This document shows, one piece after another, positions 15,913 through 59,450 of a stretch of 64,000 nucleotides of DNA. The translations under genes were made by a program, and so were the position numbers. The DNA lies in assembly GCF_000203915.1 (NCBI RefSeq), contig NC_008392.1:496001-560000 (forward strand). Reading direction: 5' to 3'. Numbering within the stretch: the stretch's first letter is position 1; each line of letters starts with the position of its first letter. The DNA comes from Burkholderia ambifaria AMMD (GTDB lineage: Bacteria > Pseudomonadota > Gammaproteobacteria > Burkholderiales > Burkholderiaceae). The notes beneath the pieces were generated by a model, which did not search any database, was not told where the DNA came from, and saw nothing but the letters and a program-made list of their open reading frames with translations.

Positions 15913-16141
15913 AAGAGGGTTGTCACGTTGCTTCGCAACGCGACCAATCTGGGAAGAAGCAGTAATTTAGGTTGTGTGTATCACACACGAGAATCCAACT
16001 TGTCTCGTCTTGCTACGCAGGTCGCCGGTACTTCAACCGGCGCGCCGCATCGATCAGCTTTGCTGCTCGATGCTCTGCGTGGGATGCTCGTAAGTGCTGA
16101 AGCACTAACGATCATCGACACAAGGCAGACTTGTTATAGGA

Positions 16142-19020
<2,879 letters not shown>

Positions 19021-19196
19021 TATAACGAGTCTGTCTCATCGACAGTCGCTACAGGTTGAGTTCTCGCGTTGTGCCGTATTCCAATTGAGTCAAACATAGA
19101 GTTCGAATCATCTTGAGATACATCGATACAATCACAACCCGGATAGTTTCCACGTCCATCTCAAGACGCTTCCGCTATCCAAATTACTTACTTCTT

Positions 19197-19213
19197 CCAG
19201 ATTGTTAAAGAAC
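19197..19213 (-). promoter_or_regulatory. boxA antitermination element in the 16S-23S spacer
   Basis: The minus strand reads GTTCTTTAACAATCTGG, close to the rrn boxA core (CTTTAACAA) that recruits NusB/NusE for antitermination. It lies between tRNA-Ala and 23S, where rrn operons usually carry a second boxA. Confidence 0.7.
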
Positions 19214-19308
19214 GACAGCCGATATCTGTTGATATCACTCTGACTGGCTCAATCGCCAATGCAAAATTCTCGGTTCAGTGTCTGAACCAAGCCCTTAGCG
19301 TTGGTGAT

Positions 19309-19384
19309 TGGTGGAGGCAGACGGGATCGAACCGACGACCCCCTGCTTGCAAAGCAGGTGCTCTCCCAGCTGAGCTATGCCCCC
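19309..19384 (-). tRNA. tRNA-Ala (anticodon TGC)
   Basis: A 76-base tRNA starting GGGGGCATAGCTCAGCTGGG with encoded 3' CCA. The anticodon loop reads CTTTGCAAG, giving TGC. The T-loop GTTCGATCC and closed acceptor stem are intact. It is the second spacer tRNA of the operon. Confidence 0.97.
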
Positions 19385-19469
19385 ATGTACAGATGACCTC
19401 AGGTTTCAGCCTAGCGGTAGAGGTACTCGTAAGCGCTGAAGCGCTAACGACCACCGACACGTCAGACAA

Positions 19470-19546
19470 TGGTGGGTCTGGTTGGATTCGAACCAACGAC
19501 CCCCGCCTTATCAAGACGGTGCTCTAACCGACTGAGCTACAGACCC
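19470..19546 (-). tRNA. tRNA-Ile (anticodon GAT)
   Basis: A 77-base tRNA starting GGGTCTGTAGCTCAGTCGGT with encoded CCA. The anticodon loop CTTGATAAG gives GAT, and GTTCGAATCC is the T-loop. Ile before Ala in the 16S-23S spacer is the common proteobacterial order. Confidence 0.97.
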
Positions 19547-19608
19547 CTGAGTCTGTCTTTAATTTACAGCCGATAAGCGTGAGCGCTCAATTTTGCGAGA
19601 AGCTCTGG

Positions 19609-21141
<1,533 letters not shown>

Positions 21142-52329: not shown

Positions 52330-53465
52330 GCTGAGCTCTCTATTCTGATTGATCACGGAGTGAAAATGCATCGAGATACCGCCCCTGCCCCCGGTCGGTT
52401 TTCATGCTGCGACCAGGGCCTTTGCATCATAACCGCGTTGCAAAAAATGTGGCGCCATCGTGTGCACAATGTTGGGGATACACGTATGGGAGAGATCGTG
52501 TCGCTGGGCCGCAGCGCTGCATCGGGCGCGACGATCATGAGCGCAGCAACCGTGTGACGAACCGGATTATTCCGTCGATACGATGCAGATGGCCTATGCG
52601 GATGCGATCCGTTTCCGCATGTCGTGCACTCGTATGAGGCTGACTGTTTCACCTGCGGAATTTGCCGATCGCGCAACGTGAGCGTCGCTTCATGAACGGG
52701 ATCACCTATCGACTTGCAAGTCTGTGTGCCTGGCTGTGATTCGTGGTCGCATGCGCGGCGGTTCATCCCATAAACGGGCACGCTTCGTTCGGTGCCGAGT
52801 TCGACGCGATCCCCTGCATGTACAGACGATGCAAAGCGAACGATCGGGTAGCCGCTCGCTGAATGCATGGTTACCTGTTCGGGGCGCTTCGTTACCAGTT
52901 GTGGGAGTGACGTTGGCGAACGAGAGACGTCGTCGCCGCACAGGGTGAATGCTTGGATTGACCTTCGTTCACGGTTGCGCGAAGAGCTTGCATCGTGCGT
53001 TTGCATGTGCGAATGCGAAGGCTTCGTCACCGCCCGGCGTCGCAATGAGTCTTGAGTCTGTGGGACGAGGATGCCGGCACGTGCTGCGCTGCGCGTCTGC
53101 GTCACAGCGTTTCCATTGGGCGGGCGCATCTGGCGCGGTGGCGTCGCGCACCCGATTTGCCCATCCGAGGAACACCTTATCGGTGAGCTTTTACAGGACG
53201 TGGCATTTTCCGACGGTGAGGATATTCGGGATTCGAGCGCGGATCCGATGGAGGTGAACTTGGTTGATGCCGGCCGCCTCACGTTCGGACATCCAGCTGC
53301 CTGCGGTTGCTGTCTCCCCGATCACGAAGCCGTACCGGTTCCGGTTCCGTCCAAAGGTAGAAAACTATGAGGCCGGGTGCCCGCGGAGACGCCGACCCAT
53401 TTCGTCAGTACACAGGCCAGCGATTGGAAAAGTGCCGATTGGCCAGGCTGGCGATAGCCGAAGAC
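52330..53465. other. Gene-free region left of the origin
   Basis: About 1.1 kb with no convincing gene on either strand. Short open frames exist but lack ribosome sites and family signatures. One iteron-like inverted copy (CCCATAAACGGGCACG, 52767-52782) is present. The stretch probably forms part of the origin region or carries small RNAs I cannot see. Confidence 0.5.
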
Positions 53466-53474: not shown

Positions 53475-53876
53475 GAAGCCCCAGCCCAGACGACAAAAAA
53501 TTCACTTGCGCGTCGATTTCGGCGATTTCTCACTGCCGGGAGGGAAACCGAGGGCGCTCCCCTGTGGAGCGCAGGCTTCAGTTACTGCGGGTAATCCCGG
53601 ATGCGAGATAGAGCGGGACGGCCATTCTTGGGTCCCATACGCGGGTACCTATGTCCCGCAAACGGCGATTTCCTCCCATAAGTTTCTACGTTTGAGTGCT
53701 TGTGAGTGGGTACTCACCTCCTTGGAAAGCCTTGTTGGGCCTGGGAGCCTTGCAGAGTGAGTCCAGATATCGAGGATTGCACAGGCAGAAAAGCCGGTTT
53801 CCTGTGCGTGCGGAGCGCTGCAGACTGGCTTTGGTAGCGGTTTATGGGGGTTGTGTTTCTGCAGAGGCACACGTGT

Positions 53877-53904
53877 GTTTACATCTTTTGTAAACAACGT
53901 TTAC
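53877..53904. other. AT-rich inverted-repeat block, candidate DNA-unwinding element
   Basis: GTTTAC (53877-53882), GTAAAC (53890-53895) and GTTTAC again (53899-53904) form two overlapping inverted repeats in one of the most AT-rich parts of the window (to about 53920). It lies between the first two iterons, so it is a candidate for strand opening. Confidence 0.45.
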
Positions 53905-54055
53905 TTCTTTAACTACTTTTAGGCGGCTCAGAGCCTTGTCTGGCAAGGGTTTGACAGGTGTTCGGTACCCATTTATGGGGGCACAGGCGGAAGAGTATGG
54001 GGCTTCAGGTCTGTGGATTTGGGGAATGGGGTACCGAGTTGTGGGAAATGGGGGT

Positions 54056-54064
54056 TGTGGATAT
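54056..54064 (-). promoter_or_regulatory. DnaA-box-like site within the iteron array
   Basis: TGTGGATAT is one base from the complement of the DnaA box (TGTGGATAA). A second weaker copy, TGTGGATTT, is at 54012-54020. Confidence 0.45.
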
Positions 54065-54796
54065 GGGGTACGCATAGCCTGTTATGGGATTTCGGCCCGG
54101 AAATGCTTCAGGTAGCCCTCTATGGGGGAATCCGTTGGTAGCCATTTATGGTGCCTTTTTCCCGATCCGTCGGCGGCCTGCGGCACAGCATTTTATGTGA
54201 GGTTGCCGGTTATGGGATGGACTTTAGGTAGCCGGTTATGGGCGCCTCCACGGACCGAGTGATCTCGTTTTGCTTGGCCCTCGGGATGTAGAGTCCCATA
54301 GACAGGATCAGGGAAACGGAAAGGTTACCTTCTATGGGGAATTCGGAAGGTAGTCATCCATGGGAGTTATTTTCGCCCGCTGGACACGATTGAAGGCAAA
54401 ACGGCCAACCGGTGGTTCTCGTCAGGTACCCATTCATGGGAAGCATTAAAGGTAGTCTGTTATGGGAGCGCGCGGAGCGTGTTGCAGGGCACCACGAATC
54501 CGGTTTGCAAATCCCGTTCCGGTGAATTGTTTCCCATGAATGGGTACCTTCGATTGGGCAAGTCTCGTGCCGGATCCTGATGGCGAACTGCACAGGTAGC
54601 AGGATTTGGGAGCTATTTTTGGCGGAAAGGTATATGGATATGGGGCTTCGCGCACATCTAAAAAAAGCCAATTTCACTTTAATTACAATAAGTTAGGCGC
54701 TGTATTGAAAGTGATACTGGAGAAAGAGACGTTGCTCACCGGCTGGAAAAGGTATAAAGTCCGCCATCAACACGGTCACCTTCTCCGGACATCACG

Positions 54797-56113
54797 ATGC
54801 CGCGTAAGCCCGCAATCAAAGGCTCCGACAAGCAGGTTTCGCTATTTCAGACGCCCGAGCCTCCCGATCTGCTGCGCAAGGCGGTCCAGGCCATTCATAT
54901 CGCTCCGAAGTCCGGAAAGATCGGTCTCCAGCAGCGCAAGATGTTCAGCTCGCTGATCAAGAACGCCCTTCGTCAGGAAGCGTTCGAGCCCGGCCGGACG
55001 AGCTTCTCGATCTCGATCGCGGCGCTCTCGCACGAGAGCGGGTTGAACAGCAACAACACGAAGTACGTGAAGGACACGGTCAACTCGCTGATCAGTACCG
55101 TCGTCAACTGGGACTACCTTGCCGCGGACCGCTCGACGGTGTGGAAGGCGTCGGGCCTGCTCGCCGGCGCCGAGCTCGAGCAATCGGTGCTGAAGTACAG
55201 CTTCTCCGACCAGATTCGCAGCGAGTTGCTCAATCCGGAGATCTACGCGCTCATCGATATGCGGATCGCGCGCGAGTTTCGGCGCTCGCACTCGCTCGCG
55301 CTGTGGGAGAACACGGTGCGCTACGAAGGGATCGGCATCACGGCGAAGATTCCGCTGCCGAAATTCCGCGATCTCATTCTCGGTCAGGACAAGGCATCGC
55401 AGTCCTACAAGGAGTACAAGCTCTTCAAGAGCAAGGTCCTGGTGCCGTGCATTCAGGAGGTGAACGAAGTTTCCGACCATACGCTCGAGCTGATCGAACA
55501 CAAGTCAGGTCGCAGCGTGGAGGCCGTGCAGTTCAAGGTGACGCGCAAGCAGAGCGCGGATACGGTCGAGGAAGGCGACGTCAAGAACGAAGCGCTCGTC
55601 GACGAAGTCGCCAAGTTCGGCATCCCGCGTTCGGAAGCGCGCCGGTTGATCACGCAGTACGGCGTGCAGCGCATCAAGGCGGCGATCGCCTATACGCTCA
55701 ATCGGACTACGAAGAAGAACGCGGCGCCCATCGACAACGTGGCCGCGTATTTCCGCAAGGCGCTGACGCACGGCTATACGCTGGCTGACGGGCAGGGGAC
55801 CGAAACGGCCGCCCCGGCGAAGGAATCCGCGCAGAGCAAGCAGGAACAGATTCGCGACAAATACCTGGCCGCGAAGGTCGACGAAGCCGGTGCGTATTTC
55901 CGCGAGCTGGAGATCGACGACCAGACCAAGCTGATCGAGCGCTACAACGAGACGGTGGCCGGTTCGAAGGATCTCACGCTATCGCCGAAGAAGAAGGCGA
56001 GCAAGCTGGCGCAAACCAGTTTCTTCCGGTGGCTGGCGCTCGATACCTGGGGCGAACCGACCTCGGACGACTTGCTCGAATTCCTGCTGAAAAGCAGCCT
56101 CGCGACCAACTGA
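54797..56113 (+). CDS. repA: Replication initiator RepA (Rep_3-type)
   Basis: A 438-residue initiator. The N-terminal two-thirds fit the Rep_3 family of iteron-binding winged-helix initiators, with IALWEN-like SHSLALWENTVRYEG and KIPLPKFRDLILGQ. The C-terminal part carries a variable, charged tail. A possible promoter (TTGCT-like at 54732, TATAAA at 54753) lies just upstream. ATG 54797 is used, with a weak ribosome site. The iteron array precedes it. Convergent with parB. This gene defines the replicon as plasmid-derived. Confidence 0.93.
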   Translation: MPRKPAIKGSDKQVSLFQTPEPPDLLRKAVQAIHIAPKSGKIGLQQRKMFSSLIKNALRQEAFEPGRTSFSISIAALSHESGLNSNNTKYVKDTVNSLISTVVNWDYLAADRSTVWKASGLLAGAELEQSVLKYSFSDQIRSELLNPEIYALIDMRIAREFRRSHSLALWENTVRYEGIGITAKIPLPKFRDLILGQDKASQSYKEYKLFKSKVLVPCIQEVNEVSDHTLELIEHKSGRSVEAVQFKVTRKQSADTVEEGDVKNEALVDEVAKFGIPRSEARRLITQYGVQRIKAAIAYTLNRTTKKNAAPIDNVAAYFRKALTHGYTLADGQGTETAAPAKESAQSKQEQIRDKYLAAKVDEAGAYFRELEIDDQTKLIERYNETVAGSKDLTLSPKKKASKLAQTSFFRWLALDTWGEPTSDDLLEFLLKSSLATN

Positions 56114-56205: not shown

Positions 56206-57237
56206 TTACTTTTGCGCCGCTACAGCCAGTTCGGCGACATATGCGTCGATCACGGTCTTGAGCCGGTCGGCGAGCGATTCCTGGTGGGACGCATCGACGC
56301 CCTTCAGTTGCAGATCCAGGCGTCCGTCCGGATAGGTCTTCAGTTGACCGATCGCGCGCGATTCGAGCGCGAAATCGTGGCGAACGCTGTAGCGCGTGCG
56401 CCCCGTCTTCTTGTTGCCGTCGCTCTGCGCGCGCAGGAAATTCTCGAGGTCGCGTACCGACTTTTTCCGGTCGATCACCGCCGTGAGCAGACGGTCGGCA
56501 GCCGGTTCGCCCAGGCGCTCGAAGATCAGCTTGAGGAAGTACGCCGCCTGCAGGCCGACCACGTCGTTCGCGCTGGCCATCCGTTCGAGCAGCGTGTTCG
56601 GTAGCGCGTTCAGCGACAGCGTCTTGCTGATCGATGCCTTGTCCTTGCCGATCTTCTCCGCGAGCGTGTTCTGGTCGGGGAAGACCTTTTCGTCGAGAAG
56701 CCGCTTCCACGCGACCGCGTCGTCGAAGATCGTCTGGCGTTCGTGGTCGTGGTTGGCGCGATACGCGATCGTATAGAGCTGCTCGGGCGTATGGTCCGTA
56801 CGGAACGTCGCGTTGATCGTCTCGTCGCCGTTGATGCTCGTCGCACGCAAACGGCGTTGCCCGTCGATCACGACGAGCTTGCCGGGAAATTCCGGAAGCC
56901 GCGTGACCTTGATCGGTTCGATCTGCCCTTCCCGCTTCAGCGTCAGCGCGAGCTCGTGCAGGCTCGACTCCGAATAAAACACACGCGGGTTGAACGGGTT
57001 CGGGATGCAGTCCTTGACTGCGACTCTCTGCGGCGCGCCGAGATCGTGCGCGTCCGCGGGCGTGGCGGCAGTCGGGGCCGCGGGGGTTGCGGCTTCGGCG
57101 GTGGGGTTCGATGCCGGCGGCGGCTCAGGCAGGCGCGTTTCCAGCGCCGCGTTTTCCTGCGCGAGCCCGCGCAGCAGGCCGGCAGCGAGATGCAGGTTGC
57201 CGGTCGGCTTCTTGTCCTTCGATGTTTCCTTAGCCAT
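56206..57237 (-). CDS. parB: Chromosome/plasmid partitioning protein ParB
   Basis: A 343-residue ParB/Spo0J-like protein. The CTP-binding motif appears as GQRRLRA at residues 126-132 (usually GERRLRA). The helix-turn-helix LAEKIGKDKASISKTLSLNAL is about residues 192-212. An Ala/Pro-rich linker of about 35 residues (37-70) lies before the domain. Its ATG (57237) overlaps the parA stop by 8 bases with a GGGAG upstream, so expression is coupled. It should bind the parS sites at 58-59.5 kb. Confidence 0.93.
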   Translation of the reverse strand: MAKETSKDKKPTGNLHLAAGLLRGLAQENAALETRLPEPPPASNPTAEAATPAAPTAATPADAHDLGAPQRVAVKDCIPNPFNPRVFYSESSLHELALTLKREGQIEPIKVTRLPEFPGKLVVIDGQRRLRATSINGDETINATFRTDHTPEQLYTIAYRANHDHERQTIFDDAVAWKRLLDEKVFPDQNTLAEKIGKDKASISKTLSLNALPNTLLERMASANDVVGLQAAYFLKLIFERLGEPAADRLLTAVIDRKKSVRDLENFLRAQSDGNKKTGRTRYSVRHDFALESRAIGQLKTYPDGRLDLQLKGVDASHQESLADRLKTVIDAYVAELAVAAQK

Positions 57238-57925
57238 GTGCGGCTCCCGTAGCGCGCGTCGACGCGATGTATTGGGCCATTTCGGTGACCAGTCTCTCGA
57301 TTTCCGCGCGGGCTTCCTTCAGCCCCTTCAGGTATCGATTGTGGTGATGGATCGTGGTGCCGAGGGCGAACGTCTGACGGTAAACCTCGCGCTGCGCGAT
57401 CTGGCTGTCCAGCAGATGCTCCCCTATTTCTTCTGCCCTTAGAATTTTTAAAATTTCTTCACGCATTTTAGTTTTTCCATTGACGCTATTCAGCATCAGC
57501 GCGGAAGACAAATTCGGGTTACGAACCGCACGCATCGATTCGATCATGCGAATCATCGCGACAGTGCTGTACAGGTCGGCTGGCGACGGCGACAGCGGCA
57601 CGAGGCAGAAATCCGCCACTTCAAGCACGGATGCGATGCGCGGATCCTCAAGGTTGCCCGGGCAGTCGACGACGATCACATCGAAATTCGCATCCTGCTT
57701 CTTGATTTCGCCGCCGATCCCGCGCCCGGCGGGGGCCAGCGACAGCACCGTCATCGGGAGCGTATTTTCGCCGCTCGTCACCCATCTGACGGACGTGCCT
57801 TGAGGGTCGGCATCTATCAAGGCGACCTTGTTGCCGCCGGCCTCGAAGGCTGCCGCGATATTGACGGAGATGGTCGTCTTTCCAGTACCACCTTTCTGAT
57901 TGCTCACGGCGATCTTGAAAGCCAT
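57230..57925 (-). CDS. parA: Partitioning ATPase ParA
   Basis: A 231-residue deviant-Walker ATPase. NQKGGTGKTTISVNIAAAFE (Lys11 and Lys16) is the Walker A, and VIVDCPGNLEDPR is Walker B. There is no N-terminal DNA-binding extension, so it is the short ParA class (type Ib/chromosomal-size). GGAGG lies before ATG 57925. The upstream region carries the parS sites. Confidence 0.95.
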   Translation of the reverse strand: MAFKIAVSNQKGGTGKTTISVNIAAAFEAGGNKVALIDADPQGTSVRWVTSGENTLPMTVLSLAPAGRGIGGEIKKQDANFDVIVVDCPGNLEDPRIASVLEVADFCLVPLSPSPADLYSTVAMIRMIESMRAVRNPNLSSALMLNSVNGKTKMREEILKILRAEEIGEHLLDSQIAQREVYRQTFALGTTIHHHNRYLKGLKEARAEIERLVTEMAQYIASTRATGAAHG

Positions 57926-58037: not shown

Positions 58038-58276
58038 CCGGCCAAGTGGCTAGGAAGTTCTTCGAGGAGTTGCGGGCGAATCGAAAATAAAAACTGATGA
58101 AAAATTTCGTTCGAGATGAAATTAGCTAAGAGACGCTAATGAAAATACTGGGGGCTTTAGCGTCGAGGGGGCGAGAAATCGGAGTAGTTCGTAAGCGCCC
58201 GGTTTCGTTCTTGTGCGGCAAGTGCTGATGCTGTTTTGCTAACGACTCGCGAGCCTAAACTGTGCCGGAATCCGCA

Positions 58277-58292
58277 GTTGTCACGTGACAAG
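58277..58292. repeat. parS site 2
   Basis: GTTGTCACGTGACAAG differs from the consensus only at the last base. Confidence 0.85.
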
Positions 58293-58412
58293 TCGATTCA
58301 GCTGATCGCGGCATTCAAATATGGATCATCGGGCGGCACGCGGATTCGATGTGCCGCGATGATTCCGGAAAATCCACTTTTCCCTCGATGCAATCCGCGC
58401 TCGGATATGGCT

Positions 58413-58526
<114 letters not shown>

Positions 58527-58536
58527 GCGACGGGCG

Positions 58537-58552
58537 GTTGTTACGTGACAAC
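58537..58552. repeat. parS site 3
   Basis: GTTGTTACGTGACAAC, one mismatch to consensus. Its reverse complement is identical to the distant site at 43196-43211. Confidence 0.85.
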
Positions 58553-58692
58553 CTCGCCACAGGCGATTGAGGACGGACGTCTTCTACCCCAGCGCGGCCA
58601 CGGTAGAGATTGCTACCCTGAAGGAATCCGAGGAGGGACACGAAGCGATGTTGGTCCGTTGTGGCCGGTCGCTGGTCGGCGTTCGATGTAGG

Positions 58693-58722
58693 CGCACCGG
58701 TTGTCACGTGACAACCGGTGCG
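58693..58722. repeat. parS site 4 in a 30-bp perfect palindrome
   Basis: The core GTTGTCACGTGACAAC (58700-58715) is extended on both sides by CGCACCG (58693-58699) and CGGTGCG (58716-58722), giving perfect symmetry over 30 bases. The other parS copies lack this extension. Confidence 0.9.
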
Positions 58723-59434: not shown

Positions 59435-59450
59435 GTTGTCACGTGACAAC
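59435..59450. repeat. parS site 5
   Basis: GTTGTCACGTGACAAC, a perfect copy of the consensus, about 1.5 kb upstream of parA. Confidence 0.85.

What the first reader, a model, noticed from the sequence alone, without database searches (positions are those of the whole stretch)
53833..54644. Plasmid-type replication origin with a dense iteron array
The repeated unit GGTAnCCnnTTATGGG occurs in at least a dozen copies immediately upstream of a Rep_3-type initiator gene, with DnaA-box-like sites and an AT-rich block. This is the layout of an iteron-controlled origin on a secondary chromosome or megaplasmid. Copy number, orientation and spacing are irregular, so the functional subset is unknown.
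Basis: partly seen in the sequence, partly recalled or inferred. Interest (0 to 1): 0.75.

Follow-up and report, generated by a model that had tools for sequence, protein, structure and literature searches.

The report
Megaplasmid origin with distant satellite iterons
This is the replication origin of the third replicon (pC3) of a Burkholderia cepacia complex bacterium, a known kind of origin; its initiator-binding repeats include four strictly spaced pairs, and copies of them sit far away on the same replicon, where they may act as a brake on replication.

Summary
The array is real and the interpretation right, but the origin is largely known: Du et al. 2016 (PMC4948915, legend) print a c3/pC3 iteron consensus that is the reverse complement of this unit. 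One point was wrong: the layout is not irregular. Across 41 origins the same 17 slots recur (all 17 in 35, 16 in 5, 11 in 1). Eight slots form four doublets spaced exactly 26 bp (four in 39 origins, three in 2), also in Paraburkholderia.

Iterons also sit far off on the replicon: a single site 3' of a transporter gene about 10 kb past repA (34 of 40 fetched loci; 0 of 6 controls) and sites, mostly 26-bp doublets, 3' of an araC gene (20 of 28 newly fetched loci, 0 of 6 controls). A sister clade lacks both; five of its members have another site 6-8 kb past repA in three unrelated flanking sequences.

I read the satellites as RepA sinks that hold down initiation, like the external RctB sites of Vibrio cholerae. 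RepA binding and that role are inferred, not shown. 26 bp is about 2.5 helical turns; half-turn separation is reported to abolish cooperativity of Rep proteins elsewhere.

The parts
53634..53690 (-). two reverse-oriented iterons (53634-53649, 53675-53690)
   Evidence: weight matrix 21.8 and 24.2 bits; slots filled in 39 and 41 of 41 origins
53833..53848 (+). iteron, slot -964
   Evidence: 25.9 bits; 40 of 41
53870..53921 (+). conserved AT-rich block with three GTWWAC sites (53877, 53890, 53899); proposed unwinding and methylation element
   Evidence: two or more GTWWAC here in 41 of 41 origins; block conservation; role inferred
53964..53979 (+). iteron, slot -833
   Evidence: 23.9 bits; 40 of 41
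54030..54088 (+). two iterons (54030, 54073) flanking a DnaA-box-like site 54056-54064 on the - strand
   Evidence: slots in 37 and 40 of 41; a DnaA-like site at -693 to -751 in 41 of 41
54111..54152 (+). iteron doublet 1, 26-bp spacing
54201..54242 (+). iteron doublet 2, 26-bp spacing
54323..54364 (+). iteron doublet 3, 26-bp spacing
54425..54466 (+). iteron doublet 4, 26-bp spacing
54533..54548 (-). reverse iteron
   Evidence: 27.7 bits; 41 of 41
54595..54644 (+). two divergent-type iterons nearest repA (54595, 54629)
   Evidence: 41 of 41 each; a role in repA autoregulation is conjecture
54730..54758 (+). conserved promoter-like stretch before repA
   Evidence: conservation in 41 origins; the consensus promoter scan found none
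54797..56113 (+). repA, Rep_3-type initiator, 438 aa
   Evidence: Pfam Rep3_N, Rep3_C; profile hits RepE and Pi structures
56206..57237 (-). parB
   Evidence: Pfam ParB_N, HTH_ParB
57230..57925 (-). parA
   Evidence: Pfam AAA_31
58277..58292 (.). imperfect parS-like palindrome
58700..58715 (.). parS-like palindrome GTTGTCACGTGACAAC
   Evidence: the parSc3 positions named in PMC5450999 agree (passages)
59435..59450 (.). parS-like palindrome, second perfect copy
52767..52782 (-). weak outlying iteron-like site
   Evidence: 18.3 bits; a similar reverse site near -2.0 to -2.1 kb in 9 of the 15 origins printed; role unknown

Best explanation
This is the iteron-controlled origin of pC3 (the third replicon, contig C4) of a Burkholderia cepacia complex genome. 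RepA binds 17 fixed sites and, with DnaA, opens the AT-rich block; the 26-bp iteron doublet is probably a unit of binding. Copies of the site kept elsewhere on the same replicon (a single site about 10 kb past repA; doublets about 300 kb before it in this genome) also bind RepA. As forks pass them these satellites double and draw off RepA, or pair with origin-bound RepA, which helps prevent early re-initiation. Shown by sequence: the array, its fixed layout and the conserved satellites. Inferred: RepA binding, origin firing, the brake.
For: Array above chance; 17 slots each filled in 37-41 of 41 origins; exact 26-bp doublets, 4 in 39 and 3 in 2 origins, 4 also in Paraburkholderia kirstenboschensis whose RepA is 70% identical. 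RepA family; published c3 consensus identical. GC-skew sign change. Doublet pattern in 51 of 61 genus genomes, RepA in the same 51, reversed pattern 2 places in all; this mainly reflects origin doublets. Single satellite 3' of the DMT gene in 34 of 40 loci, 0 of 6 orthologues not known to lie on pC3, column-permuted matrix mean 0.05, at most 4 of 40 (200 permutations). Satellite 3' of araC in 20 of 28 newly fetched loci, permuted mean 0.03, at most 3, and in 23 of 23 loci fetched earlier mostly through the motif. Core far better kept than flanks (DMT site 1.76 bits against 0.21-0.87). In a sister clade another site, 88-100% alike in the core, stands 6-8 kb past repA in three unrelated flanks (29-35% alike, ungapped). 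External RctB sites on V. cholerae chrII inhibit replication, most likely by titration (passages).
Against: No binding or replication data. The satellites add only a few sites to 17, so plain titration may be weak; in V. cholerae deletion of one external site (chrII-10) gave no growth phenotype. Genomes share ancestry, so loci are not independent. Sites were found with the matrix, so core conservation is partly by selection. Eight of 48 araC loci and six of 41 DMT loci examined lack a site. Single 1-mismatch hits away from the origin are not above background in every set: in the eight genomes I count 19 off-array hits against 27 reversed-pattern hits, and some of the 19 lie on contigs without repA (for example three in G048:C1, one in G053:C2). 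In this genome hits 8766, 599034, 691042 and 691282 lie inside open reading frames and may be chance.
Confidence: 0.65

Rival explanations
1. The satellites are operators through which RepA (or another protein) regulates neighbouring genes.
For: Some lie about 300 bp upstream of a gene start: acd in W03, G001 and G002, pntA in this genome.
Against: The two best conserved lie just past stop codons, the DMT one 31-58 bp past the gene match and araC copies within about 110 bp; the DMT one lies between convergent genes in the two annotated records looked at. The gene on the other side of the araC satellite differs between species.
Confidence: 0.15
2. The satellites are relics of old origin duplications or insertions, kept by descent only.
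For: In G007 and G040 doublets sit beside both araC and acd, as if one array had been split.
Against: Flanks have diverged while the core remains and 13 of 20 new araC loci with a site keep a 26-bp pair; a sister clade carries another site at a similar distance from repA.
Confidence: 0.15
3. The 26-bp spacing is an inherited accident with no role.
For: Within the origin it is shared by descent.
Against: Exact in Paraburkholderia, where the spacing between doublets differs (against 82), and in satellites at several loci.
Confidence: 0.1

Closest known systems
Burkholderia cenocepacia J2315 c3 (pC3) origin (Du et al. 2016, PMC4948915; abstract, passages and legends seen)
   Same: same iteron consensus, repA, parABS, replicon
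   Different: doublet geometry and named conserved c3 satellites are not in the passages seen; the S1 Table legend says other repeats are found throughout the genome and names a second c2 cluster 140 kb away; the table itself was not read
Vibrio cholerae chrII ori2/RctB and its external chrII sites (PMC3937223, PMC6090056; passages seen)
   Same: iteron origin on a secondary chromosome; initiator sites away from the origin on the same chromosome that inhibit it
   Different: different initiator; 12-mers with gaps of 10-11 bp; 39-mers and crtS there, no crtS-like copy of this motif found on the main chromosome here
F, P1, R6K, RK2-type iteron plasmids (PMC4980987; passages seen)
   Same: Rep_3-like initiator (F RepE and R6K Pi by profile), direct repeats
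   Different: 17 sites, eight of them in doublets about half a turn out of phase; half-turn separation is reported there to abolish cooperativity; distant satellites

Membership tests
Rep_3 initiators | WH1 and WH2 domains | tested here: met
   Rep3_N 41.8 and Rep3_C 40.5 bits, above cut-offs; profile of 51 homologues hits 1rep and 2nra; the single sequence alone has no PDB hit
Iteron-controlled origin | directly repeated sites next to the initiator gene | tested here: met
Iteron-controlled origin | initiator binds the repeats | not testable with these tools
   needs EMSA or footprinting
Iteron-controlled origin | fragment replicates autonomously | not testable with these tools
   only indirect: pC3 can be cured by plasmid incompatibility (PMC5614643, passage citing others)
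pC3/c3 replicon of the B. cepacia complex | c3 iteron consensus, RepA and parSc3 | tested here: met
   the letters of parSc3 are recalled, and only positions named in PMC5450999 were compared
Initiator-titration locus (datA-like) | initiator sites outside the origin on the same replicon | tested here: met
   by sequence only
Initiator-titration locus (datA-like) | extra copies lower initiation | not testable with these tools
   needs a copy-number assay
crtS-like trigger on chromosome 1 | conserved initiator site on the main chromosome | tested here: not met
   for this motif only: the one C2 hit at 1 mismatch scores under 10 bits; crtS itself is not an iteron copy, so another kind of site is not excluded

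The most novel reading that the evidence does not exclude
RepA of this family works through iteron doublets held half a helical turn out of phase, and its replicon carries dispersed sites whose duplication tells the initiator that the fork has passed: a self-contained, replicon-specific timer in place of a crtS-type signal.
Probability: 0.3. Interest if true: 0.7.

Novelty: new variant of a known kind. Interest (0 to 1): 0.45.

Why it matters
How secondary replicons other than V. cholerae chrII fire once per cycle is little known. A 2026 survey (PMC13342612, passages) names the identification of such timers in further systems as a next step and notes that third replicons of Burkholderia appear to finish before the chromosome. 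Conserved satellites give named DNA sites to test, and a sister clade with other satellites gives a natural comparison. A conserved doublet at about 2.5 turns sits oddly with the report that half-turn separation abolishes cooperative Rep binding.

Tried and rejected
Sites 8766, 599034 and 691042/691282 of this genome, first taken as satellites because they recur in other species, lie inside open reading frames; the first two score only about 15 bits, the last two 22.0 and 23.6. I do not count any of them. C4:587680 (23.3 bits) overlaps a doubtful 117-aa frame. A crtS-like site on chromosome 1: the C2 hit scores under 10 bits. Chromosome 2 hits of G001/G002: under 13 bits. Consensus promoter and terminator scans gave no more than shuffles. 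The structure model of RepA (mean pLDDT 70.9, pTM 0.36) is too weak to lean on and its fold search was not run. In one search the slot counter let neighbouring slots pick one site (14 spacings of 0); recount properly.

The site about 33 kb before the origin in G009, G012 and the B. stagnalis record is identical in the core, but its flanks are also 65-66% alike between G009 and the other two, so it is weak evidence; G012 and that record are near identical there (99%).

Paper searches on which 'not found in print' rests: (open-licence library only; supplementary files not read, including the table of PMC4948915 that lists the c3 repeats).

Full report
OBSERVATION. The unit GGTAnCCnnTTATGGG is dense before a Rep_3 gene: 23 matches in the window at up to 3 mismatches against 4.32 expected, 17 of them in 53634-54644. 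A weight matrix made from 41 origins (the window plus 40 of the 41 loci then held; L028, of Paraburkholderia, was left out because its repA start was not found by the script) scores the same 17 places. In the whole genome (7.53 Mb, 4 contigs; the window is C4:496001-560000) 17 hits at up to 1 mismatch comprise 10 at the origin, 6 elsewhere on C4 and 1 on C2.

WHAT IT IS. repA (54797-56113) has Rep3_N and Rep3_C; as a profile of 51 homologues it matches RepE (1rep) and Pi (2nra). parB, parA and three parS-like palindromes, one of them imperfect, follow. GC skew turns from mostly negative to positive at about 52 kb. RepA is 95-100% identical in 33 of 34 loci, two of them titled chromosome 3; the other, Paraburkholderia, is 70%. 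The c3 iteron consensus printed in the S2 Fig legend of PMC4948915 (tCCCATAAacggntACCtnt) is the reverse complement of this unit. The origin is therefore the known pC3/c3 origin. Methylated GTWWAC and CACAG at B. cenocepacia origins are also already reported (PMC7364216, passages).

FIXED LAYOUT. With each site given to one slot only, the 17 slots are filled in 37 to 41 of 41 origins; 35 origins have all 17, five have 16 and one has 11. Four doublets spaced exactly 26 bp are present in 39 origins and three in the other 2. A DnaA-box-like site (-693 to -751) and at least two GTWWAC sites near -920/-898 (-872/-850 in L023) occur in all 41. The 41 are not independent: some are from one species or even one assembly. 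Paraburkholderia kirstenboschensis (L028) has the same motif and four exact 26-bp doublets, but other distances between doublets: 71, 109 and 81 bp there (from the positions) against mostly 90, 122 and 102 or 92 in 39 origins here. So it is the spacing inside the doublet that is kept. At 10.5 bp per turn, 26 bp is about 2.5 turns; a review (PMC4980987, passage) reports that half-turn separation abolishes cooperative Rep binding.

SATELLITES. In this genome doublets lie at C4:248733 and C4:253411, about 300 kb before the origin, and single sites at C4:562537 (25.5 bits) and C4:587680 (23.3 bits). In nine other genomes or records at up to 1 mismatch I count 124 hits: 90 at the origin, 31 elsewhere on the contig or record with repA, 3 on other contigs; the reversed pattern gave 3 in all. 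Part of the 31 are the coding hits that I do not count. Two B. multivorans records have no off-array single hit at this threshold but one satellite by the doublet pattern. In 61 genus genomes the doublet pattern (up to 2 mismatches) hits 51, the reversed pattern 2 places in all; RepA is found in 51, the same 51. That co-occurrence is mainly due to the origin doublets. The list of places was cut; among genomes of at most seven contigs, ten in the listed part show an off-origin doublet, and in all ten it lies on the repA contig (G000, G017, G018, G024, G025, G035, G037, G054, G055, G059). In drafts the replicon cannot be told.

TEST BY NEIGHBOUR GENES. I took orthologues of the two neighbouring genes from the 61 genomes and looked just past their ends. 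DMT: 42 orthologues at 82% identity or more; 40 were fetched, 34 have a site. This genome has one too, so 35 of 41 examined; G011 was not fetched. Of the 40, 39 genes share a contig with repA, G005 does not. Of the seven weaker DMT matches (71-75%) six were fetched and none has a site: G008, G031, G034, G056 have no RepA; in G048 the gene is on another contig from repA; G015 is unclear; G033 was not fetched. araC: 48 orthologues at 80% or more. I fetched the 28 not yet held, and 20 have a site within 200 bp; for three of these (G029, G054, G061) a doublet there was already in the list. The 20 loci of the sample held before, 18 of them found through the doublet pattern, all have one. Together 40 of 48. 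Six more distant araC homologues (59-76%; one stretch cut short by its contig end) have none. Column-permuted matrices, 200 each: mean 0.03 and 0.05 loci, maxima 3 and 4. Of the 20 new araC loci with a site, 13 have a 26-bp pair and 17 a pair at 26, 51 or 52 (threshold 10 bits).

CONSERVATION. DMT satellite (34 loci): core 1.76 bits per position, flanks 0.21-0.87. araC satellite (20 loci): nearest copy 1.64, copy 26 bp away 1.01, spacer between them 0.94, far flank 0.23. The core figures are partly circular, since the matrix found the sites; the fixed place, the second copy and the decayed flanks are not.

SISTER CLADE. Six genomes (G009, G011, G012, G020, G026, G053) lack the araC satellite, and the five whose DMT locus was fetched lack that too; G028 and G057 lack the araC one and G055 the DMT one. 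Four of the six (G011, G012, G020, G026) and the B. stagnalis record have an inverted single site about 6-8 kb past repA, scoring 22.9-26.9 bits. Their cores are 88-100% alike, their flanks fall into three groups that are 29-35% alike to each other, i.e. unrelated. Against this, as a whole has 19 off-array hits for 27 reversed-pattern hits, so a lone hit means little; it is the repeated place that counts. G053 has other hits and G009 none past repA within that distance.

CHROMOSOME 2. With the c2 consensus of the same paper (up to 1 mismatch), hits on the c2 contig are 20 of 21 here, 21 of 21 in G001 and 23 of 24 in G002, with no reversed-pattern hit; besides the main cluster each has a second group about 133-152 kb away. 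PMC4948915 already mentions such a c2 cluster.

MECHANISM. Shown by sequence: array, fixed layout, conserved satellites. From published work: external RctB sites on V. cholerae chrII reduce replication, most likely by titration (PMC3937223, passages). Inferred: RepA binds the satellites, and their duplication draws off or couples RepA and delays the next round. Weak points: few satellites against 17 origin sites; no binding data; related genomes; species that lack one or both.

VERDICT. Origin: already known. Doublet geometry and conserved satellites: a new variant within a known kind as far as the searches listed here show, with the caution that the paper's supplementary table was not read.

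Noticed in passing
G059:C2 (4.85-Mb contig), repA at 1370123-1371439: The pC3 repA, array and araC satellite lie on a 4.85-Mb contig while 18 of 20 c2-iteron hits are on C1: perhaps pC3 fused to the main chromosome, or misassembly.
   Followed up: no
G000:C3:1847669-1851201 and 1983754-1984928: Chromosome 2 has its own iteron satellites about 133-137 kb from its main array; similar in G001 and G002.
   Followed up: partly
window 16001-20000: GC content falls to 0.53 and GC skew to -0.15, with the other bins at 0.58-0.71; maybe an acquired island.
   Followed up: no
window 58236-58707: Open frames with simple dipeptide repeats, i.e. a low-complexity DNA tract near the parS-like sites.
   Followed up: no
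G013:C16:70-1335 and G016:C58:34090-35358: Second RepA homologues (50% and 46% identical), probably other plasmids.
   Followed up: no
L082 and L080/L081: In G007 and G040 doublets stand beside both araC and acd, as if an insertion had split one longer iteron array.
   Followed up: partly
G048:C1:459, 2811, 151104: Three exact copies of the same iteron-like 16-mer on a contig without repA; unexplained.
   Followed up: no
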